Assembly (NCBI GenBank): GCA_021813325.1
Contig: JAKALA010000001.1
Location: 62,001 to 126,000, forward strand
DNA length: 64,000 bases
Source: a bacterium
GTDB taxonomy: Bacteria > Verrucomicrobiota > Verrucomicrobiia > Limisphaerales > UBA11358
Direction: 5' to 3'
Shown here: positions 20,862 through 44,939 of the stretch, piece after piece
Layout: the number at the start of each line of letters is the position of its first letter
Numbering within the stretch: the stretch's first letter is position 1
Program-made: the position numbers and the translations under genes
The notes under the pieces: generated by a model
Told to the model about the DNA's origin: nothing
What the model saw: only the letters and a program-made list of their open reading frames with translations
The model's database searches: none

Positions 20862-23800
20862 CTATGGCAACAGCAAACGGTAGAATCCTTGCGGCCAGTC
20901 TGGATCAATTTGATTGGTGAAATTGAAATCGCCACGGGCATCGAACTGATTGGTGATCAGCCGGGTCCAATTCGTAAAAGGCGTCGCCAAATTGGTTGTG
21001 CCCACCAAATAGTAATCCCCGGCGGGCACGCCGCCTGTGCCGCGAAAAATCAACGCATTTCCAGATACCTTCACCGAACCGAGCTCCGGAGGATTTATTG
21101 GCGCCACGGAAATCATTCCCGCGCTTGGTAATTGGCTCACATCCCAGGCCAGGCCGGCTGGCAGCGCAGGCAAATCCACAGTGGCAAATGCCAGATTATA
21201 AGCCGTCGCATTGAACAGCCTGAAACGATCGCCGGCGGCCAAAATGCCACTGCCTTGATCAAGGACCGCAAGCGTTCCACCGCCGCTCAAAATTCCTTGG
21301 ACGTTCAACGCATCATTGGTCAGCGGCGAATGGCTGATTTCCATGAAATTTGTGGCGCCCGCCGCCAAGGTCAAATTACCGCCAAACGTCAACGCGCCGA
21401 TCGCGTTCACGCCCGGGGCAACGGTTGCTCCCGGGCGGATTATTGCGTCTCGGCCGATTGAACCGTTTCCCTCCAGCATTCCGCCAGCGGCGACAACGCC
21501 GCCGGCGAACGAGCCATTAACCACCAACGCACCGTTGCTCAATACACAGCTACCGCTGGCCGGACTGTCGCCGGAAAGCACCAGTGAACCGGTGCCGACT
21601 TTCACAAAACTGTTCGTCCCATTGAGAATTCCCGCGAACGTGGTCGAGGCATTGCCAGAACCAGCCGTCAGGCCGCCGTTGGACAATTTCACCTCACTGC
21701 CCGTGACCCCGGAAAGCGAGCCAACTGTTTGCATATGCCCGCTGCTATTGTCAAAAACCGCCGTGCTGCCATTCAGATTCAACGCGGTGTTCGCCGGTAA
21801 AGTTGCGGCAAAAACCGCGTCCGGTCCGCTGACTTGAAGCGTTTGCAATTCATCGGCAGACAAAGCCCGGTTCCAGATCCGCACTTCGTTGTAGCTGGCG
21901 CTGGCGGTGTTGTCGCTGGTGTATGCGGAGCGGCCCAGCCAGAAATTGGCGTTCAGGAAATTGACCAACGTGTTGGCCGAATCGAAACTGCCCCGCGCAT
22001 TGCCCAGCGTGCTGCCAGCGGCGGCGGCCCGATACCAGGTCACACGCGTTGTGCCGTTCGTTCCTGCGCCCGGCTCAATCACCAGGGCAATATGAAATTC
22101 CGTTCCGAGCGAATACGGCTGGCACGTGTTGTCGGCCGTGGAAGTGACGCTGTCTTTCCACTCGACGCGATCGGAAGCCAATGTCGTGCCTTGGGTCCAG
22201 CTCATCAACAGGTTTTCGGAGGTTGACGTTCCCACATCGATGATGCGCGACCAGTTTTGGATGGCATTGGGCGTCGCCCAGATTTCGATGGTCACCGGCG
22301 AGGTCGCGTTCGGCAACAAGTTCGCGCCCAGACTCACATAGCCTGAGGTCGAACGAGCACCACCCACCAGGGTGACGGAATTGGCATTCAAAGTGGCGTT
22401 GTTGCCGCCCAAATTCACAATGGCCGCTGTCTGCCCGCCGACGGAGTCCGCGAGGGTTCCATTAAAACTCCAACGATGCACCAAGCCATCCATGCCCAGC
22501 AATTTGAGCGTGCCCGCATTGATGCTGGTATTGCCGGAATACGTGTTGGAATTCATCAGGGTCAACGTGCCACTCCCGGCTTTGATCAGCGAACCCGCGC
22601 CGGCAACCGAGCCCGGCCCGGTAAAAATATAATCCTTGCTGGCAGTGATCATCAGCGTGCCAGGTTGAACATTAGTGAGCAGCGTCACGGGAATGGCATT
22701 TGATCCGGTGTCATCAAAAACGGTCGGCAACGCATTGGTAAAAACGGTTTGAGCGCCATTTTGCGCCAGCCAATTGGCCGACTGATTCACATCCCAAATG
22801 TTGCTGATTCCATCGCCGTGCCAGGTCAGCGAAGTGGCAGTCGAACCACCTGCAATCGCGGAGACCGTTCCAGCCACCGTCAGATTGCTCGTGTTCCAAG
22901 TTGCGTTGACCAATGGCGGCAGATTGATCGCATTAAACGAGCCGGCGTAACTTGCCGCGTTCAAAATTTTAAAACTGTCACCCGCGACAATTTGCCCGCC
23001 AAGATTATTCACTGTGAGCGTGCCGGCACACGTCAGGGTTCCACCAACATTCACCGGATCATTGGTGCCATTGGCCTTGTCCAATTCAATGACCATCGCG
23101 CTGCCGGTGTCACAAGTAAGATCGCCGGTGAAGGTCAACTGGCCAGCACCATGATTACCGGGCGTCAGCGTTCCTTTTACCGAGGTCGTGCCGCCAATGA
23201 TGCCGGAGCCGCCCAACGTTCCCGAGGCGTTGACGGTTACCGCTCCAGTCGCGGCGGAATCGTCGCCATCAATCAACAGCGCACCGGCATTAATCGTAGT
23301 GGCGCCGGTGTAGGAATTGGTGCCGGCCAACGTCAAGGTGCCCGTGCCGGTTTTGGTCAAGATTGTTCGCGAACTGGAACTATAACTGCCATCGATAATT
23401 CTACCGTGGAAAACCGAATCAAAGTCGTTGCCACCAATCGTGTAAGTGACCGAATTGCCGGAGGAATTGTCGCCAGACAAGGTGGTGTTGCTGCCACCCG
23501 CGAGCGCGCCCAGGGCAATGGAGCGTGGTGCGTTGCGCAAGCCCATGCCAACCGTTCCGGAACCCAAATCAAACGTGGCCTGCGAACTGCCAGAAGTGCC
23601 ATTCAACCGCACGCCATTGGCCGAGCCAAACGTCAAGCGGCCGCTGAATCCGCTGAGATCACCGATCAAATCGAATACGCCCGTGGTGATATTGATATTG
23701 ATGTTGTTTGCGCCGGTGACTTTGCCGACGCCGGCCAAGCCGCCGCCACTGCCACCGCTGATGGTGCTGTTGGCCAGCGTGCTGATGAGATTGGTCGGCT

Positions 23801-26800
23801 TGGTGGCACCGATATAAAATGTTCCGCCCGCCAGCCAGACGGTGCCCGATCCGACCGCGCTGATTTGCGTAGCGGTAAAGGTGCCGTTGCTGATGACCGT
23901 GCCGCCGGCGTAAGTGCTGCCCGCTCCGGGTTGAAAGGTGCCCGGACCAGTTTTAATTAGTGTCCCCGGACCGGTAAAAATACCGCTCATGGTCAGACCC
24001 GAAGAACTGGTGGCCACTTCAAACGTGGCCCCATTGGCGCCCACCGTGGCGCCGCGAACCACACTGGCGGAAATACCGGTGTAACGGAACGTGCCACCGT
24101 CGATGACAAGATTGGTGGGATCGCTGGAGGATGCCCCGATGGCGCTCGGCGAACCGCCGTCACTGACATCGGCAACGCTTAACCCGCCGCCATTGATGGT
24201 TGTGACCCCGGTATAACTATTCGTGGCCATGGCGATGGTCAATGTGCCCGAGTTTTGCTTGGTCAAGCTGGCATTGCCGCCGATGCTGCCACTGCCGGCA
24301 AATGTATAATCGTTGGTGGCGTTGATGATGACGGAGTTGGGATTCAAAGTTCCGGTTAAATTCACTGCGGGTGTGGTGGAACCCGAATCATCAAAAGTGA
24401 CAGCATCTCCCGTCACAAAATAATCACGCACCGAACCGTTCAGCCAATTGCTGGTAATTTGGGTGTCCCAGGTATTGGCGAGCAAGCCACCTTTCCAAAC
24501 CACGTTGGTCGGAAACCGTTTATCGCTCACCACGAGAGTAATGGCGCCAGGTGGATTGGCCAGCGAGCCGGGAACGCCAACCAGTTTTAGATTGGCGAGT
24601 GAACCGTTGAAGCTGCCGGCATATTTGATGAGCGTGTAAGTGCCAACACCCAGTTCACCGGCGAGCGCTTTGACGTCGATCACATTGGCGCCAGACAAAT
24701 TTAAATCGCCGAGGATGTTCAACTCATCGTTCGTCCCGCTCACGCCAGCAGGATCATCGGACAATTCAAACAAATTGGTCGCGCCACCCGATTCCGTCAT
24801 GGAATTGGCAATGTTCAAAGTGCCAGCCGCGTTTCCCGGCGCCACCATTCCGCCCGCTTCAACCAGCAAGCCTGCCCCCAATGTTCCCGAGCCGCCAACC
24901 GTCGCTCCGGCTTTCACGGTCACAACACTGGAACTCAAACCGCCATTCACCCGCAGCGTGCCATTGCTCACGGTCGTGCTTCCGCCAAAGGTGTTGGTGT
25001 TGGCCAAAGTCAGCGTGCCGAGGCCACCCTTGCCCAAAGCCATGGAACCGGTCAATGCGCCCACGCCGTTTATTTCGTAGCTTTTATTGGCCCAAACCGT
25101 CACGGCACCCGGAGCCAGCGCCGTGGTAATATTAACCGGCATTGAATTATTGCCGTAGTCATCAAAGAACACACGGTTGCCGCTGGCAAACACTTTGGGG
25201 CTGCCGTTGGTGTTCCAATTGGCCGTTGCACCAATGTCCCAAGCATTGTTATTGGTGCCACCGCGCCAGTCCAAATCATAACCCGACACCAGCGGCGGCA
25301 CGCCCGGCAACTCCAGGTTCAGATAGTCATACATGACATGCTCGGTGGCGCTGCCGGTGAAAACGCGACCTTGAACCAGCGTGATGGTGTTGGTGCCGGG
25401 ATGCAGTTTGGCGACCGGAATGGAAACCGCATCCGTGCCGTATTTGGCATGAATGCCTTCGCGAATCAGCGCGTTGCCATCGCTCATGGACGGATAAAAA
25501 CTGGTGAACATGGAAGATTCGCCGTTTACATACATGTCGATGCGGGCGTGATCCGCGCTGGCCCAGGCAAAATTCATCGTGGCATTGCCGCTCGCCGGCA
25601 CGGTGGGCAGAATGAAATTGATGCGCCATTTCCAGGCCGACCAATCGCCCGGCCAGGCACAGTGCGCATAGTTCCAATCATTCGATTCCACGCTGGCCCC
25701 GATGTTGAATTCGAGCGGATTGGAAAATTCGCCGGGAAAGTTCAGCCAGTTGTAAGGCTCAAACCAGTCGGTGCTGCCATGTTTGAATTCGCTGGCGCTG
25801 CGATTGGGTTTGCCAATCTCCCACGCAATAAAATCACCCGTATGAGCGATGTTCCAAGTAAAAATTCCGAGATCATTGGTGGCGCCCGCGGTGACCGTGA
25901 TGTTGTTGGTTGAGAATTCCTTCATTGCGCCATCGTTGAACGCGTAAAGCGTGTATTTGCCCGGACGAACATGGGGAATGGTGAACTGTCCAGCGGCATC
26001 GCAATGCGCCCAATATTCGTAATTGAATCCCTGAAATTGCCAGCCGGTATAAGCATTTGCGGGATCGGTTGGATCCGCCAGCCCGATCCAGGCGTTGGAC
26101 GAATTGACGGAGGATTTGAGCGGGTCGTGCATCAAGAAAGTTCCCGAAACGGCTCCGCGCTGGCCGGCCAGCGGATACAGCGCGTTGGTCACCCAGGCAT
26201 AAGGCCAGGCCGATTCTTCCGCCGCCGCCTGGGCTTTCGCATCGGCCCAGCACGCGTCACCGCCCGCGGCATTGGTATTGCAGTAAAGCAGGAACGGGCC
26301 GTAGCACTTTCCCCAGTATGTGTTCGTGGCGATGACGAAATCCGGCGTGTTGTAATGCAGGCCGTTAAATGTGACGTGAATAATGCCGGCAGCCGCATTC
26401 AAATCGGCAAACGTCGGGCCGCAATTGAAAAACTCGTGGCTGCCGAAAACACACCATTGCCCGATTTTGTTGACATCGCTCGCATGGCCATCGCAGGGCA
26501 AATCCCAAAGGTTGGCGGAGTATTCATATTTGCAATCATATTTGCCGGCGCGAACACCCGTCGTCAGTTTGATCACCTCCGCGATGCCCGTGGCCAGACC
26601 GGCGGCGTAATCAGCGGGACTGGGCATTTGCCAATGGCGCACGTCATCGACATAAATTTTTTCGCAGACATTGGTGCCGGCATTGTTGCCAATCCACCAG
26701 ACCATGCGCCAGGAACCCAGACTGACGGCCGGATAGGCGGGTTGATGTTCCAAAACGGAATAACAATAAAGCCCGGTGTTGCCGCGCCGCAAAACCCAGT

Positions 26801-27233
26801 GCAAATCAATGTCGGCCGGGATGGTGTTGACGGCGGGATTGTAGGTGCGCTTGAAGCTCAAATCCACCATGTCGGCGTTGATCACATTTGTCGTAAACAC
26901 ACAGCCAAACATGGTTTCAAAGGCGCCCCCTACCGATGTGCCGGTGGAAGCATCCCAACCCGTGCCGGTCCAGTCGTGGTAAATCTTGGTTTTGGAACCG
27001 GATGTGGCTACGAGTTCTTTGCCGCCGTATATGAGCGATGTAATGTCGCCGCTATCTTTATCAATGGTCGCGGTGACAAATCCATTGGCAACAATCACCG
27101 ATCCGCCATTCACCGTCACCGTTACGTCGGGGCCGGTATTCCCGCCGCCAGGAACATTTCCCCAAGCCGATACGGCCAGCCACATTACTTCCACCAAAAT
27201 GAAAAAACTGAATCGGCGCGGCAAAATATTCAT
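20862..27233 (-). CDS. 2123-aa secreted protein: N-terminal rhamnogalacturonan lyase (PL4)-like region, autotransporter-associated beta-strand repeats, LamG-like domain
   Basis: Signal peptide; N-terminal VTATIDKDSGDITSLIYGGKEL..., RGAVSGTFLMHDPL...GQFTIPHVRPGKYTLYAFNDG (PL4-like); repeated GTLTLANTNTFGGSTTVSNGTLRVNG / GTLTLAGTNSYTGATTINAGALLIDG motifs; LVHRWSFNGTLADSVGG LamG-like. Confidence 0.88.
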   Translation of the reverse strand: MNILPRRFSFFILVEVMWLAVSAWGNVPGGGNTGPDVTVTVNGGSVIVANGFVTATIDKDSGDITSLIYGGKELVATSGSKTKIYHDWTGTGWDASTGTSVGGAFETMFGCVFTTNVINADMVDLSFKRTYNPAVNTIPADIDLHWVLRRGNTGLYCYSVLEHQPAYPAVSLGSWRMVWWIGNNAGTNVCEKIYVDDVRHWQMPSPADYAAGLATGIAEVIKLTTGVRAGKYDCKYEYSANLWDLPCDGHASDVNKIGQWCVFGSHEFFNCGPTFADLNAAAGIIHVTFNGLHYNTPDFVIATNTYWGKCYGPFLLYCNTNAAGGDACWADAKAQAAAEESAWPYAWVTNALYPLAGQRGAVSGTFLMHDPLKSSVNSSNAWIGLADPTDPANAYTGWQFQGFNYEYWAHCDAAGQFTIPHVRPGKYTLYAFNDGAMKEFSTNNITVTAGATNDLGIFTWNIAHTGDFIAWEIGKPNRSASEFKHGSTDWFEPYNWLNFPGEFSNPLEFNIGASVESNDWNYAHCAWPGDWSAWKWRINFILPTVPASGNATMNFAWASADHARIDMYVNGESSMFTSFYPSMSDGNALIREGIHAKYGTDAVSIPVAKLHPGTNTITLVQGRVFTGSATEHVMYDYLNLELPGVPPLVSGYDLDWRGGTNNNAWDIGATANWNTNGSPKVFASGNRVFFDDYGNNSMPVNITTALAPGAVTVWANKSYEINGVGALTGSMALGKGGLGTLTLANTNTFGGSTTVSNGTLRVNGGLSSSVVTVKAGATVGGSGTLGAGLLVEAGGMVAPGNAAGTLNIANSMTESGGATNLFELSDDPAGVSGTNDELNILGDLNLSGANVIDVKALAGELGVGTYTLIKYAGSFNGSLANLKLVGVPGSLANPPGAITLVVSDKRFPTNVVWKGGLLANTWDTQITSNWLNGSVRDYFVTGDAVTFDDSGSTTPAVNLTGTLNPNSVIINATNDYTFAGSGSIGGNASLTKQNSGTLTIAMATNSYTGVTTINGGGLSVADVSDGGSPSAIGASSSDPTNLVIDGGTFRYTGISASVVRGATVGANGATFEVATSSSGLTMSGIFTGPGTLIKTGPGTFQPGAGSTYAGGTVISNGTFTATQISAVGSGTVWLAGGTFYIGATKPTNLISTLANSTISGGSGGGLAGVGKVTGANNININITTGVFDLIGDLSGFSGRLTFGSANGVRLNGTSGSSQATFDLGSGTVGMGLRNAPRSIALGALAGGSNTTLSGDNSSGNSVTYTIGGNDFDSVFHGRIIDGSYSSSSRTILTKTGTGTLTLAGTNSYTGATTINAGALLIDGDDSAATGAVTVNASGTLGGSGIIGGTTSVKGTLTPGNHGAGQLTFTGDLTCDTGSAMVIELDKANGTNDPVNVGGTLTCAGTLTVNNLGGQIVAGDSFKILNAASYAGSFNAINLPPLVNATWNTSNLTVAGTVSAIAGGSTATSLTWHGDGISNIWDVNQSANWLAQNGAQTVFTNALPTVFDDTGSNAIPVTLLTNVQPGTLMITASKDYIFTGPGSVAGAGSLIKAGSGTLTLMNSNTYSGNTSINAGTLKLLGMDGLVHRWSFNGTLADSVGGQTAAIVNLGGNNATLNANSVTLVGGARSTSGYVSLGANLLPNATSPVTIEIWATPNAIQNWSRIIDVGTSTSENLLMSWTQGTTLASDRVEWKDSVTSTADNTCQPYSLGTEFHIALVIEPGAGTNGTTRVTWYRAAAAGSTLGNARGSFDSANTLVNFLNANFWLGRSAYTSDNTASASYNEVRIWNRALSADELQTLQVSGPDAVFAATLPANTALNLNGSTAVFDNSSGHMQTVGSLSGVTGSEVKLSNGGLTAGSGNASTTFAGILNGTNSFVKVGTGSLVLSGDSPASGSCVLSNGALVVNGSFAGGVVAAGGMLEGNGSIGRDAIIRPGATVAPGVNAIGALTFGGNLTLAAGATNFMEISHSPLTNDALNVQGILSGGGTLAVLDQGSGILAAGDRFRLFNATAYNLAFATVDLPALPAGLAWDVSQLPSAGMISVAPINPPELGSVKVSGNALIFRGTGGVPAGDYYLVGTTNLATPFTNWTRLITNQFDARGDFNFTNQIDPDWPQGFYRLLLP

Positions 27234-38013: not shown

Positions 38014-38343
38014 TTACTCAAAATCGTAAACCAAAACCTTCTTCACAAACGGCTTCACGCAGTGCTCGATGAATTCCAGATGCTGGGGATGCACCTGATA
38101 ATCATCCTGCGCCTTTTTGCTGGTGAACACCGTATTGAGCGCCACCTGATACGTTTGATCCACGACCGGACGATGGCTGCCCACCATTTTGCCGACGTGA
38201 AAATGCGTCATGCCCGGAATGCTTTTGAGAAATTGATTGGCGCCCGCGATCACCGCGTCGGCGGCCTCGGGTTTCGCCGGATCGGTCCAAAAAATGACAA
38301 TATGACTGAAACGGGTGACAACTTGTGATAAATTCGATTCCAT
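38014..38343 (-). CDS. Dabb (stress-responsive alpha/beta barrel) family protein with altered 5' end
   Basis: FSHIVIFWTDPAKPEAADAVIAG...HVGKMVGSHRPVVDQTYQVAL...HPQHLEFIEHCVKPFVKKVLVYDFE; the canonical N-terminus is replaced by MESNLSQVVTR. Confidence 0.85.
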   Translation of the reverse strand: MESNLSQVVTRFSHIVIFWTDPAKPEAADAVIAGANQFLKSIPGMTHFHVGKMVGSHRPVVDQTYQVALNTVFTSKKAQDDYQVHPQHLEFIEHCVKPFVKKVLVYDFE

Positions 38344-38345
38344 AT

Positions 38346-39923
38346 ATGCAAAATGCGATTCTCTACCTGCGCTATTCAACCCCAGAGCAGGCAGATGGTC
38401 AATCAGAACAGCGGCAAATTCAAGGTGCGCAGCGATGGTGCAAGGAACACGGTGAAAGGCTGGTCAAAACCTACAAAGATTTGGGTGTTTCAGGCGGCAA
38501 AAATTCAGACGATAGGAAAGCCTTGTCGGCTCTGTTGAATGATTTGACCCGTGGCAGCATTCCCAAGTATTTGCTCATTGAGGATGTTGACCGGCTGTCA
38601 AGAATGCTGCCGCTGGATTCGCTGAATTTGATTTCAAAAATACTCGATTACGGCGTGACCATTGTTTCGTTGCGAGACAATCAAACCCTGACCAAAGACA
38701 ACTGGCAATCGTCGCAGTCGTTTTTGATTCTCACGCTGAAAACCACTCTTGCAAATGAAGAACGGCAGAAGCGAATTTTCCGTGGTAGGTCGGCGTGGAA
38801 ACAAAAGCGGCTGGATGCTGCCTCCAAGATTTACACAAAGCGAGTTCCGGGTTGGCTGACCGTGAAAGACGGCAGAGTCGTCAAAATCCCTGAACATGCG
38901 GCAACCGTTAAGAGACTGTTCAAGTTGTCCAGCGAGGGTTTCGGTATTGTGGCGATAATCCGCATGTTCAATGAGCAACGGATAAAATCGTTTCGTGGCA
39001 ACGATTGGAACAAAGCAGTCATCTATAATACGCTGACGAGTGAAGCCGTTTTAGGATGTTTCCAGCCGAAAACTCTTATCAATGGCGAACGTGTTGACGA
39101 CGGGGACAAGATTCCCGATTATTTTCCACGCATCATCGAGGACGATTTGTTCTACTCGGTTCAAGCCAAGCTGAAACAGCGGAACACCTACAAAGGAGCT
39201 GGATACCGATACACGCTGAACCCTGCCAAAAATAATTTGTTTGCTGGCCTGATTAAGTGCGAAAAGTGCGGTGCAAGTTTGATTCACTTGGTCAGGTCAA
39301 GGCACGGTTACAGTTACTTGGTTTGCGCCAACGCTCACAAACACAAGAAATGCTCTTACAAGGTGGTTGCGACGAATGTTTTGGAAGATTGTTTTCAGGT
39401 GTTCTTAACCGATAATCGTATATTCAAAACGTTCGAGAAGCCGTCGAATACCGCTGCGGCGACACGATTACAGATTGAAGGGGTAAAAAAGCAGTTGGCA
39501 AAATTCATGTCGCTCATCGAAGGCTCGGATGGAACTCCACCAAAGACGATTTTGAAACGGCTTCAAGAATTGGAATTGCAGCAATCTGAACTTGAGAAAA
39601 AATTAGGCGCGGACATTGCCAAAGACAAACTCTCGGCGAGCATTCCCGGCAAGTTCGAGGAATTTTGCAAAGAGATGGAAGCGAACATTGGCAATCCAAT
39701 GGGACGGGCAAAAATCGCCTCAATCCTGAAAGACCTGATTTCAAAGATTGTCGTCAATCCGGCAAAATGCACGATGGCTGTTCATTGGGCGCATGGTGGC
39801 GCACAGAGCGTTGACCGCATTCAATGGGATAAGAAGTCGAAGGAATTTTGGCACCTGTTCTCAAATGGGCTGCGTGATTTCAGTCAGCCCACATACGATT
39901 TGATGTCGCTTCACAAGAAATAG
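38346..39923 (+). CDS. large serine recombinase / site-specific integrase
   Basis: AILYLRYSTPEQADGQSEQRQIQGAQRW resolvase N-terminus with catalytic Ser; recombinase domain; zinc ribbon LIKCEKCGASLIHLVRSRHGYSYLVCANAHKHKKCSYKVV; C-terminal coiled coil. Confidence 0.94.
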   Translation: MQNAILYLRYSTPEQADGQSEQRQIQGAQRWCKEHGERLVKTYKDLGVSGGKNSDDRKALSALLNDLTRGSIPKYLLIEDVDRLSRMLPLDSLNLISKILDYGVTIVSLRDNQTLTKDNWQSSQSFLILTLKTTLANEERQKRIFRGRSAWKQKRLDAASKIYTKRVPGWLTVKDGRVVKIPEHAATVKRLFKLSSEGFGIVAIIRMFNEQRIKSFRGNDWNKAVIYNTLTSEAVLGCFQPKTLINGERVDDGDKIPDYFPRIIEDDLFYSVQAKLKQRNTYKGAGYRYTLNPAKNNLFAGLIKCEKCGASLIHLVRSRHGYSYLVCANAHKHKKCSYKVVATNVLEDCFQVFLTDNRIFKTFEKPSNTAAATRLQIEGVKKQLAKFMSLIEGSDGTPPKTILKRLQELELQQSELEKKLGADIAKDKLSASIPGKFEEFCKEMEANIGNPMGRAKIASILKDLISKIVVNPAKCTMAVHWAHGGAQSVDRIQWDKKSKEFWHLFSNGLRDFSQPTYDLMSLHKK

Positions 39924-40015
39924 CAATTTTTTTGCTCCCCGCTTGCCGGTATTGCGCCCCCGTGTTCCAGTCCAGTCACGCCGAACGAATCGGCACGAAA
40001 CAACAAATCAAAACT

Positions 40016-40414
40016 ATGAAGACTGACACGAAGAACAAAAACAAGAACGCCACCGCCGCCCTCGCCGACATCAACGCTCAAATCGAGGCGTTGAACCAAA
40101 AGCGCATCGGATTGGCCGAACCGCTCAAAGCCCGCTACGCAGAACTCCGCACGGAACTGGCCGACATGGAGACGGAAATTCGTCAACTGGATCCCGTGTG
40201 GAAACCCGAACCAACGAAGCCGAAGGCCGAGACAACGATTGCCGAGATTCTCACGGCGCATGGTTCGCCGATGGCAGCCGAGGAAATCATTCAGGCGGTT
40301 GGCAACGTGTTCACGCCTTGGAAGGTGAAGAACACGCTGAAAAAGAAATCCACCGGCGCAAAAGCCGTGTTCACGTTTGCCGATGGCAAATACACGGTCA
40401 AGGCCACGGCCTAA
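40016..40414 (+). CDS. hypothetical protein with N-terminal coiled coil and C-terminal winged-helix-like (HARE-HTH-like) domain
   Basis: TTIAEILTAHGSPMAAEEIIQAVGNVFTPWKVKNTLKKKSTGAKAVFTFADGKYTV resembles HARE-HTH-type wHTH. Confidence 0.65.
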   Translation: MKTDTKNKNKNATAALADINAQIEALNQKRIGLAEPLKARYAELRTELADMETEIRQLDPVWKPEPTKPKAETTIAEILTAHGSPMAAEEIIQAVGNVFTPWKVKNTLKKKSTGAKAVFTFADGKYTVKATA

Positions 40415-40432
40415 ACCACGAATCCACTTCAC

Positions 40433-40460
40433 GACCCCGGCAAGTGGCCGGGGTCTTTTT
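40433..40460 (+). terminator. intrinsic terminator
   Basis: GACCCCGGC AAGTG GCCGGGGTC TTTTT; perfect 9-bp stem. Confidence 0.88.
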
Positions 40461-40698
40461 ATGCGGTCAAAGAATCCAAACCACGGTTTTTTTGCCTCTG
40501 CGGGGGTGTCCAGCACTTGACTTGTGATTTTCTCCTTTATTCATGCGGGGGAAAAAATTCAACAAAATTTTCCGCCCGGAAATCCCTGATATTTCAGGGG
40601 GTGGATTGAAATTCGCATTTAACGCCAATGGTTTTATGAAGTGGCCTTAACCAGCCCGCAGCGTTTGACTTGGTTTGAAAGTCTGATTGAATGGGAGA

Positions 40699-43600
40699 AT
40701 GGATAAAATATGCACACCACCACCAATAGCAGAAATTCAACCAGTAACGCCGCCCCCTGCGGCTCAACCCCAGATGACATTGGATGACTACGCCAAGGCC
40801 ATTAACGAGGCGCACCGGAATTGTGAGGCCATTGATAGGGAATCCAAAAAGAAAGGCCGTGAGGCTGTCCAATGGGCTTACAAGGCCGGTCAACACCTGA
40901 ATGTCATCAAAGACCTTGTTCCGCATGGTGAGTGGCTGCCTTGGTTAAAACAGAACTGTCCAGAAATCAAGGAACGGACGGCGCAACGATATATGGTGGC
41001 GGCCAAAAACGTCCGTGGGTCGGATTTGGAGCATTTTACAGGTGTCCGACAATACGAAATTGCGACTGGCGCACGGTCGCCCGAAAAAATTGATAAAGCC
41101 CCCGACGCCATGGACGGCGAAGCGGCCAAGCCTGACGACGCCAACACGCCGGACATCATCCTCGCTTCGATGCAACGAGGATTTGCTACCCTGCAAAAGC
41201 AATATACCAGTCTGGTAACACTTCATCCCAAATTGCAGCCGCATCTTTTGGGAATTGATTTGAATTGGTCATTGCCGATTTTATTGCAACGCTGGCAGTA
41301 TCCTCTCGGCGACGCCTTCGATTTTTTCAATTTTCCTTGGACTCCGGCAGTGTGTGTTCGGTGCGGCCATATCCGGCAAGACGAGGAAGTTTTTGTCCCG
41401 ATTCATCATTGGGTTCCCGAATACGCTCATCGTAACGAATGGTGCGATGTCTGCGCCGAGGAATACCATGACAAAGAAGAGACTTTCGACTTGGGCGAGG
41501 AAATTAAATTGCTCGTCAAAAATCTGAACGAATTGAAATCACTACCGGCGAAAGATTACACCCTCGCCCAAAAACTGTATCAGTTGCAGCAGACCAAAAT
41601 CGCCGAACCCGCCGCCATTACAGCCGCTGAAAACAATGTGTGGGTGCCGACGGATTTGAACAACGAAGAAGTGACGGTTGAAGAGATTGGGCGATTGTCG
41701 CCCAAGATTGTGATAGCGAATGACGATGAGACAAAGACGCTCTGGAACATTTACCGGCACTTCGTATCGTCAGCGGTCAACAATCTGCCACCAACTCGAA
41801 ATGTGCGATTTTTGGTGGTGGATGATTCAAAGCCAAACAAGCCGGTTCTTGGCGTCGGTAATATCAGTGGCGACTTCCTGGCTCTTGGTGAACGTGATGA
41901 GTTTATCGGTTGGACGGCAGAACAACGCAACGCTGGCAAATTGAAGCATACCGCTGTCGGTTCAACCATCATCGCCACACAACCTTTTGGCTCAAACTTC
42001 AACGGCGGCAAACTCATCGCTGCGCTCATCACCAGTCAGATGCTCGCCACCGCCACCGCGTTTGCGACGGTTCAAACCAAGTCCACGCAGGACAAACCGT
42101 GGCGGGTGTTCTTGTTGTCCGACGTGCAAAATTTGGACGCGACCACGCACTACCAAAGCGAGGTGTATGAAAACGCTGGCGGAGATTTCATCGGCGATGA
42201 CGATGACGGGTCTTCCGAAAGCCAGACGTGGGTTAATTACAACCACGTTTGGGTTGCAGGAATTGGCGGTGCCGGTTCTGAATACAACAACTGGCAAAAT
42301 GATTATTGGGATTATCAGGGAAACCACAGCGGCAGCGCAGGTGGTATGAATGGGAACATGGTTTGGGATTGGAGCGGTTGGGGTGAAGAAGTCGGCTCTA
42401 ACAATGACGGCACGACCACCACCGGATTCACGAACACGCTCTGGATTTGGGATAGAATCGGCAACGAGCATTGCAACGTCAGCGACCCCGTGAACAAAAC
42501 TTGGGACAATGATTATTCAGCTTGGGATGACGACAACGAAAAGGGCAGCCAGCATGACACCTATACGCGGACGGCGGACACCACTTGGCACGTTCAGACC
42601 GGCGGCAAGGCGATTCCTGGTCGTCAAAACTTGTGGCAGTTCAACGGCTCGGTTTGGGAGATACTTGACAAGCGGGCGGTGCCGCAGTTTGTTGGAGCAT
42701 CCATGCGTGAAGTCACCAACAAGACGCAGATTGCGATTGGCAGCCTCGGCAACTTGAAGGCCGACGGCAATCTATGGCTGACTTTGCCGGATGACGTGGA
42801 GAAGGACATCACGCCCACTGTCGGGGGAAAAGATTTCTTCACGTTCAGCGTGGGCGGGCAGAAATATCCGTTGACCATCTTGGCGAACGGCAATGATTTG
42901 TCTGTGACTAATCCTGAATTTTGTGCTGGGCAGCAAGTGAACTTCACATTTGACGGCCTGCCTATGGGTAGCGTTTCCAATATGCTTGGCAAGTGGAGCC
43001 TGCCGACCAAGTATGTCAACGAACAGTGGCAACATCTGCAATATGTCGTTACGGAGCCGATTAGCGGGGCTGGTTATTGGGAACCTTACGGTTCGGTGAA
43101 TTATCGAATCAACGCTGCCCTACTGGAAAACACCAATCAGACATCCTGCTGGTTTGTGAATGGAAACGGCGGACACGTTACCGTTGGTTTGAGCCTTCAA
43201 TTTCCAAATGGGCAGTTTGTAAGTGTTGCCGCCAATGGGGATTTTTCGGTTTTTCGCCCCACAGTTTCAAATTTTGTTCCAGACAATCCAATCAGTGTCG
43301 TGCTTGATACAAATGCTTTGCCAAGCATTTACTTGGGTTTGGGCGATGCGGGAGGTGGCGGTGGCGGTATGGGGTGGTCTTTAGACGTGCATTGGAAAAC
43401 AAATTTCAACGGGACATTTTTTTTCACGCAGTTGATTGACCGTGAATGGTCATGGGACATTACAACATTTCACCTGCCACGCTCACGTTCCACTGGCGGG
43501 TTTTGGCTCGACAATGGAAACCCATATACCGCAGCAAGCATTTTTGACACATCCGCATTGAGGAATCCCAAATATGTGGCGACACTATCTTTTGGTGATG

Positions 43601-43848
43601 GCCCGTCATTAACCGACTCCTTCTATTCGTTTGCTGATTTGAACGATTCGTTCAACACATATCTTGAATTTCAACCGCCGGGCGGAATTCCGGTAACAAT
43701 AGGACGAATTACTTGGGGATGGCACGGGCAAACCGCCGTTTCTGGTGGTATATGGTCTTTGGCCAGAGGCGACGTTACTGGGCCGAGTTTGGATTCTGCT
43801 GACGATACGTTTCCAGAATGGACAACCGTTTATTACAACTCGAATTAA
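40699..43848 (+). CDS. chimeric ORF: DUF3102-like N-terminus, DruA/DUF4338-like middle, extracellular-type C-terminal region
   Basis: INEAHRNCEAIDRESKKKGREAVQWAYKAGQHLNVIKDLVPHGEWLPWLKQNCPEIKERTAQRYM (DUF3102-like); VRFLVVDDSKPNKPVLGVGNISGDFLALGERDEFIGWTAEQRNAGKLKH (DruA-like); W/N/G-rich C-terminus. Confidence 0.7.
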   Translation: MDKICTPPPIAEIQPVTPPPAAQPQMTLDDYAKAINEAHRNCEAIDRESKKKGREAVQWAYKAGQHLNVIKDLVPHGEWLPWLKQNCPEIKERTAQRYMVAAKNVRGSDLEHFTGVRQYEIATGARSPEKIDKAPDAMDGEAAKPDDANTPDIILASMQRGFATLQKQYTSLVTLHPKLQPHLLGIDLNWSLPILLQRWQYPLGDAFDFFNFPWTPAVCVRCGHIRQDEEVFVPIHHWVPEYAHRNEWCDVCAEEYHDKEETFDLGEEIKLLVKNLNELKSLPAKDYTLAQKLYQLQQTKIAEPAAITAAENNVWVPTDLNNEEVTVEEIGRLSPKIVIANDDETKTLWNIYRHFVSSAVNNLPPTRNVRFLVVDDSKPNKPVLGVGNISGDFLALGERDEFIGWTAEQRNAGKLKHTAVGSTIIATQPFGSNFNGGKLIAALITSQMLATATAFATVQTKSTQDKPWRVFLLSDVQNLDATTHYQSEVYENAGGDFIGDDDDGSSESQTWVNYNHVWVAGIGGAGSEYNNWQNDYWDYQGNHSGSAGGMNGNMVWDWSGWGEEVGSNNDGTTTTGFTNTLWIWDRIGNEHCNVSDPVNKTWDNDYSAWDDDNEKGSQHDTYTRTADTTWHVQTGGKAIPGRQNLWQFNGSVWEILDKRAVPQFVGASMREVTNKTQIAIGSLGNLKADGNLWLTLPDDVEKDITPTVGGKDFFTFSVGGQKYPLTILANGNDLSVTNPEFCAGQQVNFTFDGLPMGSVSNMLGKWSLPTKYVNEQWQHLQYVVTEPISGAGYWEPYGSVNYRINAALLENTNQTSCWFVNGNGGHVTVGLSLQFPNGQFVSVAANGDFSVFRPTVSNFVPDNPISVVLDTNALPSIYLGLGDAGGGGGGMGWSLDVHWKTNFNGTFFFTQLIDREWSWDITTFHLPRSRSTGGFWLDNGNPYTAASIFDTSALRNPKYVATLSFGDGPSLTDSFYSFADLNDSFNTYLEFQPPGGIPVTIGRITWGWHGQTAVSGGIWSLARGDVTGPSLDSADDTFPEWTTVYYNSN

Positions 43849-43861
43849 ACACTCTCGAACT

Positions 43862-44512
43862 ATGAACACAGTGAACATTTTTTCAGGCAGCCACTGTTTT
43901 CGGCTGGCCATTGCAATTTGGATTTTTGTTGTCGGAATTATCCGTGCCGAACCGCCAGCGGGAGAAGGAACCGATTTTTCGGGAAGCAATGTTTTTTGGG
44001 GAAATGAAACAAATGGGGTTAGCATGGCATTATTGATTGCCCCCCTATCAAGTTCAAATCACATCCCGATTCATTGCACGCCAATCGTCAAAAACAGCCG
44101 GAGCCAAACAAACCATCTATGGGTTTGGTTTCCGCCGATAGAAAGCTGCTGCCAGATGAGCTTGATGGACGAAAAAGGCAATTCAGTTCCCAAGACAGCC
44201 AAAGGCAAATCACTTGGCAAACCCATTACCGAACCAATGATGTTAAAAGATGGCCCCAACATCAAAGCAGGCTACAAGATGCGACCATTGGCTCAAAACA
44301 AAGCAGAAATGCTTTCTGATTTCTCGTTTGACTTGCAGAATTATTTTGAAGTCACCAACTCTGGCAAATACCGACTGACATACGAAATGCGGGTTGTTCT
44401 GCCACAAAGCACCAAAGGAAATTACATGACGCTTCACACTACGAATTTGCCGACGACAGCCCTTCCGTCAGTGATAGCCGATGTAGAAGTTAAACCCTCT
44501 ACTGGAAAATAA
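43862..44512 (+). CDS. secreted hypothetical protein
   Basis: Signal-peptide-like MNTVNIFSGSHCFRLAIAIWIFVVGIIRA; complete ORF starting shortly after the chimeric ORF. Confidence 0.65.
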   Translation: MNTVNIFSGSHCFRLAIAIWIFVVGIIRAEPPAGEGTDFSGSNVFWGNETNGVSMALLIAPLSSSNHIPIHCTPIVKNSRSQTNHLWVWFPPIESCCQMSLMDEKGNSVPKTAKGKSLGKPITEPMMLKDGPNIKAGYKMRPLAQNKAEMLSDFSFDLQNYFEVTNSGKYRLTYEMRVVLPQSTKGNYMTLHTTNLPTTALPSVIADVEVKPSTGK

Positions 44513-44671
44513 TTTTCCCCGCCGCCTCAACGGCCAGAATGTTCTTAACCGGCTTCTGGCCGTTTTTGCTAACGACTTTGTGTTCTGGCTCGCTGCCGCT
44601 GTCGCCATCTTCAAAAGGCCACTTGGTTGTGACAATGAAGTGTGATGGATTGACTGCTGTAGGGTGGTTTG

Positions 44672-44702
44672 ACGTTCATCACTGTGATCCAGTGATGAAC
44701 GT
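44672..44702. repeat. perfect 12-bp inverted repeat near the element right end
   Basis: ACGTTCATCACT GTGATCC AGTGATGAACGT. Confidence 0.75.
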
Positions 44703-44939
44703 GGAATGGGGTTGGCCGTTGCGCCAGACGGTCTGGGGCGTATCGTCTTCCGTTGGGGATAGGGTTTTAGGGGTGGAGCGTCAGGAATCCAATAAAACCA
44801 AGGGGATTTAATTTATTGTCACTAAAGTAAAACATATTACGGTGTGTGAAAACATGTTAAAATTGAATCAATAAACATTCCGAGCTTAAAGGAATTTTTC
44901 TTTCGTGAGTTTCGCGCACTTCGCCACTAAAATCGCTCC

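What the first reader, a model, noticed from the sequence alone, without database searches (positions are those of the whole stretch)
40699..43848. Chimeric ORF: intracellular DUF3102 + DruA-like domains fused in frame to an extracellular-type protein
Residues ~30-120 look like DUF3102. Residues ~360-460 (WNIYRHFVSS...VRFLVVDD...VLGVGNISGDFLALGERDEFIGWTAEQRNAGKLKH...PFGSNFNGGKLIAALITS) share the RDxxIGWxxEQR core of DUF4338/DruA proteins of the Druantia anti-phage system. Around residue 455-465 the sequence switches, via a hydrophobic signal-peptide-like stretch (LIAALITSQMLATATAFA), to ~580 aa of W/N/G-rich material typical of secreted proteins. The DruA-like domain appears to be cut before its C-terminus. 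Either a deletion fused two cargo genes, or this is a genuinely new effector architecture carried by the integrative element.
Basis: partly seen in the sequence, partly recalled or inferred. Interest (0 to 1): 0.72.

Follow-up and report, generated by a model that had tools for sequence, protein, structure and literature searches.

The report
Accidental two-gene fusion in mobile element
A small mobile DNA element in this bacterium carries one long gene that looks like an accidental in-frame join between a half-deleted phage-type (DruA/GNAT-like) protein and a secreted protein that lost its own start, and it is seen in only this one of 320 related genomes, so it is most likely a deletion by-product rather than a new defence effector.

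Summary
The ORF is real (40699-43848, 1049 aa, no stops). HMMs confirm DUF3102 (weak) and DruA/DUF4338 (clear). The DruA match stops at profile position 162 of 297. The switch is exact: DruA homology ends at ...LIAALITS (residue 446), and from Met448 (base 42040) on the sequence is a separate gene. In a related genome that gene is a free-standing 612-aa ORF (91% identical) with its own ribosome site and signal peptide; the window has lost its first 10 codons. In 65 complete viral relatives the DruA domain always continues 196-206 aa further; here 0 aa remain. In 320 genomes of the order each half occurs alone; the combination occurs only here. Both halves lie inside one ~6.5-kb serine-recombinase element (about 38,320-44,841) inserted in the start of a Dabb-domain gene beside fabD. 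Best reading: an internal deletion in the element's cargo fused the two genes in frame and destroyed the GNAT-like fold. The DruA-like part belongs to a stand-alone phage family, not to a Druantia operon: PADLOC finds no DruB-E in neighbouring genes. Not a widespread new effector. More interesting in passing: the element family supplies a replacement start codon for the Dabb gene it interrupts.

The parts
38017..38343 (-). Dabb-domain gene (target of integration); its first codon is replaced by an element-derived N-terminus MESNLSQVVTR before FSHIVIFW
   Evidence: Homologues in 36 of 49 genomes of the genus; in empty sites the protein starts M-FSHVVIFW
38320..44841 (.). Integrative element: left end beside the Dabb gene start, right end ...TTGTCACTAAAGTAAAACATATTACG followed by GTGTGTGAAAACATG (copy of the native Dabb start). 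Ends good to a few bases
   Evidence: Dabb and fabD are divergent neighbours about 60-100 bp apart in several relatives; the same right end is left as a short relic in G003; the same left end plus recombinase in G039 and G032, and remnants in G026 and G043
38346..39923 (+). Large serine recombinase (resolvase, recombinase and Zn-ribbon domains)
   Evidence: PF00239, PF07508, PF13408; phrog_95 integrase E 1e-82; beside the Dabb gene in G039 (93% aa) and G032 (65% aa)
39932..40414 (+). Small ORF of the element core (160 aa; by eye coiled coil plus winged-helix-like C-terminus)
   Evidence: Kept in G039 after the recombinase and in a tyrosine-integrase element of G003 upstream of DUF3102
40699..41088 (+). 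DUF3102 domain (residues 1-130 of the fused ORF)
   Evidence: PF11300 25.4 bits; free-standing 170-aa relative in G003
41089..41478 (+). Linker with two CxxC pairs, likely Zn ribbon (residues 131-260)
   Evidence: Sequence CVRCGHI...CDVCAEEY
41479..42036 (+). DruA/DUF4338-like GNAT domain, N-terminal half only (residues 261-446); last ~200 aa missing
   Evidence: Alignment with the 409-aa G008 protein and phage homologues; fold model m5b81dc233214
42037..42039 (+). Fusion junction (codon CAG, Q447): DruA homology ends before it, secreted-gene homology begins after it
   Evidence: DNA alignment with G013 and G032 native genes
42040..43848 (+). Secreted-protein gene without its ribosome site and first 10 codons (residues 448-1049)
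   Evidence: 612-aa native gene in G013:C79, 91% aa identity, own ATG and signal peptide
43745..44512 (+). Downstream ORF (255 aa as called), stays next to the secreted gene in G013
   Evidence: BLAST and tblastx against G013 contig C79

Best explanation
The ORF is an accidental in-frame gene fusion inside the cargo of a serine-recombinase integrative element. Shown by sequence: a DUF3102 - Zn-ribbon-like - DruA/GNAT protein loses its last ~200 residues at exactly the point where a secreted-protein gene, minus its ribosome site and first 10 codons, begins in the same frame. Inferred: the element once carried both genes on one strand, and an illegitimate deletion removed everything from the middle of the DruA domain to codon 10 of the secreted gene. 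Inferred: the element promoter now drives one long product. Its GNAT fold lacks 3 of 7 core strands and should be inactive; the secreted domain sits behind about 450 cytoplasmic residues with only a weak hydrophobic join, so it is probably not exported. Before the break, the DruA-like part most likely worked as a phage-type GNAT-fold enzyme acting on DNA or protein, and DUF3102 belonged to the element's own upkeep.
For: Each half is a complete separate gene elsewhere: secreted gene in G013:C79 with its own start; full-length DruA in G008 and in phages. In 65 complete viral homologues 196-206 aa always follow the break point; here 0. Search with the whole fused protein in 320 genomes of the order: only G000 matches across the join; other hits stop at about 450 or start from about 444-463 or later. 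No second DruA and no DruA C-terminus found in the host genome. Both pieces lie between mapped element ends. AF2 model of full-length DruA, pLDDT 89: the break is at residue 211, and strands 228-233, 248-258 and 318-329 are lost. Best PDB matches are GNAT proteins, first phage Mu Mom; a paper calls DUF4338 a GNAT domain (PMC10853773).
Against: No genome with the pre-deletion element (both genes whole, in this order) was found, so the deletion is inferred; capture of the secreted gene by recombination at the join is equally possible. All 1049 codons are open, so decay has not set in, or the protein is used. The first 140 codons of the secreted part differ much from G013 at both silent and amino-acid sites, which looks like recombination with a diverged copy. 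The genome is a draft and read coverage over 42000-42080 could not be checked.
Confidence: 0.8

Rival explanations
1. A working new effector: the DUF3102-DruA half anchors or regulates, and the join acts as an internal signal anchor that presents the secreted half outside the cell.
For: The frame is kept over 1049 codons; the join is the most hydrophobic 15-residue stretch of the protein (mean hydropathy 1.54) and ends in the old signal-peptide tail MLATATAFA.
Against: Unique in 320 genomes. The intact DruA helix of G008 at the same place is equally hydrophobic (1.55), and the native signal peptide is clearly more so (2.09), so the join needs no selection to look like this. The GNAT fold is cut in half.
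Confidence: 0.07
2. Assembly artefact: two loci were joined wrongly in the draft genome.
For: The genome is in 123 contigs; the G032 contig with a relative of the secreted gene starts exactly at its ATG.
Against: The join lies inside a 228-kb contig, between matching element ends, with the element core upstream as in G039 and the gene pair downstream as in G013. The missing parts of either gene were not found elsewhere in the genome.
Confidence: 0.08
3. The fusion comes from integration of the element into the secreted gene, with 42039 as its right end.
For: The recombinase and its core ORF lie directly upstream on the same strand.
Against: The lost 5' part of the secreted gene is not at the left end; the left end lies in the Dabb gene and the right end at 44841, as shown by empty sites and the G003 relic.
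Confidence: 0.03

Closest known systems
DruA / DUF4338 (PF14236), stand-alone phage type (e.g. Pelagibacter phages HTVC008M and Mosig EXVC030M)
   Same: Same N-terminal half: RDxxIGW, GGKL..ALxxS; 33% identity over 186 aa
   Different: Phage proteins are 390-437 aa with ~200 aa after the break point and no DUF3102; here the second half is gone
Druantia DruA
   Same: PADLOC DruA models hit (E 9e-9)
   Different: No partner genes found in the element or neighbouring genes tested; domain incomplete
Phage Mu Mom and other GNAT proteins
   Same: Fold of the intact relative resembles GNAT proteins; Mom ranks first (probability 0.90, E 0.075)
   Different: Weak match, 8% sequence identity; activity unknown
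Secreted proteins with glucodextranase-B/Ig-like domains in the same order
   Same: Second half is 38-91% identical to them
   Different: Relatives are free-standing or joined to Ig-like domains, never to DruA
Serine-recombinase integrative elements
   Same: Large serine recombinase at one end, target gene restored, variable cargo
   Different: Target is the start of a Dabb gene; one narrow paper search found no description

Membership tests
DruA (PF14236) | HMM score above the gathering cut-off | tested here: met
   41.9 bits against 27
DruA (PF14236) | Full-length domain | tested here: not met
   Profile 48-162 of 297 only; ~200 aa missing against all 65 complete viral homologues
Druantia system | DruB-E partner genes, above all the helicase DruE, next to druA | tested here: not met
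   No PADLOC match to Druantia partners in the element ORFs or ten flanking genes
GNAT fold | GNAT-like topology of the intact relative | tested here: inconclusive
   AF2 pLDDT 89; top PDB matches Mom and acetyltransferases but E >= 0.075; literature states GNAT
DUF3102 (PF11300) | HMM score above the cut-off | tested here: met
   25.4 bits against 24.4 with the N-terminal half alone; 23.8 (just below) with the whole ORF
Exported protein (second half) | N-terminal signal peptide | tested here: not met
   First 10 codons and ribosome site of the native gene are absent; no ribosome-site-like sequence seen before ATG 42040
Integrative element with site-specific serine recombinase | Recombinase, defined ends, empty sites in relatives | tested here: met
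Integrative element with site-specific serine recombinase | Excision and circular form | not testable with these tools
   Needs PCR or reads

The most novel reading that the evidence does not exclude
The fused protein is made and useful: the half GNAT-like and DUF3102 part keeps a secreted domain inside the cell or anchored in the membrane under control of the element, a new effector made by deletion.
Probability: 0.05. Interest if true: 0.6.

Novelty: new member of a known kind. Interest (0 to 1): 0.27.

Why it matters
It shows that an eye-catching domain architecture in one draft genome can be the scar of a deletion, which matters for automated calls of defence genes (this ORF scores as DruA). 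It also exposes a family of integrative elements in this genus that use the start codon of a Dabb gene as target and put a new start codon in its place, and it places a DruA-like GNAT family as a very common stand-alone phage gene of unknown function.

Tried and rejected
Integration right into the secreted gene (ends do not fit). A general recombinase hotspot in the Dabb-fabD gap: other relatives have unrelated genes there without a recombinase. Lost gene parts elsewhere in the genome: none found. A fused relative in viral contigs: none with the whole N-terminal query, no relative of the secreted half. DUF3102 beside or in other DruA genes: none among 115 ORFs and their surroundings. Fold of the secreted half from a single sequence: useless (pLDDT 30). 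Relaxed selection on the secreted part of the window lineage: 23 amino-acid against 41 silent codon changes, versus 14 against 57 in the two relatives, Fisher p 0.053; not decisive, since silent differences are high in the same stretch.

Full report
Observation. The ORF runs from TTG 40687 or ATG 40699 to the stop ending at 43848. Pfam gives DruA (PF14236, E 9e-11, profile 48-162 of 297) and a marginal DUF3102 (23.8-25.4 bits, cut-off 24.4) in the first half and nothing in the second. PADLOC DruA models agree; PHROGs give phage families of unknown function.

The two halves are two genes. Searching relatives with each half separately gave a free-standing copy of the second half in genome G013 (contig C79): 612 aa, 91% identical, 84% at DNA level, with a ribosome-site-like GAGGA and the start MKKIIFSIGLMLATATAFA. 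Homology to the window begins at base 42039. The first half matches a 409-aa protein in G008 up to LIAALITS; that protein continues with EIIRNEWQLRFG and about 198 residues in all, and so do phage homologues. In 65 complete viral ORFs the part after this point is 196-206 aa long. A search of 320 genomes of the order with the fused protein found no second genome whose match crosses the join.

What the DruA half is. None of 115 ORFs carries DUF3102. An AF2 model of the intact G008 protein is confident (pLDDT 89, pTM 0.87). Its best PDB matches are phage Mu Mom and several GNAT acetyltransferases, with weak E-values. A published analysis names DUF4338 a GNAT domain (PMC10853773). The window protein ends at residue 211 of that model and lacks the strands at 228-233, 248-258 and 318-329. 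I infer that it cannot form the fold. There is no sign of a Druantia operon in the element or in ten neighbouring genes.

What the secreted half is. It belongs to a family in the same order, often joined to or next to Ig-like/glucodextranase-B domains. The family is modular: the first ~275 residues also occur with a different C-terminal module of about 165-185 aa (GHAWW...TDAP...NC; G032, G045, G003, G002). The native first 10 codons and ribosome site are gone in the window; ATG 42040 has no ribosome-site-like sequence before it. The first part of the secreted half differs from G013 at many silent sites (dS near 1 or above over the first 200 codons, against 0.2-0.5 further on), which suggests recombination with a diverged copy.

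The element. In several relatives a Dabb gene and fabD stand back to back with about 60-100 bp between them. In the window 6.5 kb lie between them: serine recombinase, 160-aa ORF, the fused ORF, a 255-aa ORF. The right end TTGTCACTAAAGTAAAACATATTACG is repeated as TTGTCACTAATGTCAATCACATCACG in a short relic at the same site in G003. The recombinase beside the Dabb gene recurs in G039 (93%) and G032 (65%), with remnants in G026 and G043. G039 shares the left 2.4 kb (85% DNA identity) and then carries other cargo. In all of them, and in the G003 relic, the native start of the Dabb protein (M-FSHVVIFW) is replaced by a new in-frame N-terminus (MESNLSQVVTR, MESNVSQVVTR, MKEQIQDSGKVVTY, METIPQAATR, MKNQTPDSGKSAAS, MNQKA). 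Thus the join at 42039 is inside the element and not one of its ends.

Mechanism and limits. Shown: two truncated genes joined in frame inside one mobile element, seen once. Inferred: an internal deletion (or capture by illegitimate recombination) made the join; the frame is kept by chance (one in three). A functional fusion is not excluded, because the frame is open throughout, but nothing supports it. Coverage of the draft genome at the join could not be tested.

Verdict. Real sequence feature, ordinary cause. The useful by-products are the element family with its unusual target and the reminder that the DruA-like family is mainly a phage gene with a probable GNAT fold.

Noticed in passing
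window 38017-38350 and 44815-44860; L145, L160, L134, L136, L117: Serine-recombinase elements of this genus insert at the first codon of a Dabb gene next to fabD and supply a new in-frame start and N-terminus; the old start is left at the far end. GTGACAA occurs inverted at both ends.
   Followed up: partly
window 42040-42900; L017, L020, L031, L034: The secreted family has a shared front part and at least two unrelated C-terminal modules, one with GHAWW...TDAP...NC motifs, as in variable-tip secreted effectors.
   Followed up: partly
L199-L278: DruA/DUF4338-like stand-alone proteins of 390-437 aa are very common in viral contigs, including relatives in marine Pelagibacter phages; function unknown, fold GNAT-like with phage Mu Mom as best PDB match.
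   Followed up: partly
window 39932-40414; L038:4501-4914: The 160-aa ORF recurs beside integrases of two unrelated types (serine and tyrosine), so it may be a core gene of such elements.
   Followed up: no
window 20865-27233, minus strand: 2123-aa ORF with a rhamnogalacturonate lyase front, autotransporter-type PATR repeats and a laminin-G domain.
   Followed up: no
L145:8906-10291: The related element in G032 carries other cargo, among it a 461-aa protein that by eye could be a replication protein.
   Followed up: no
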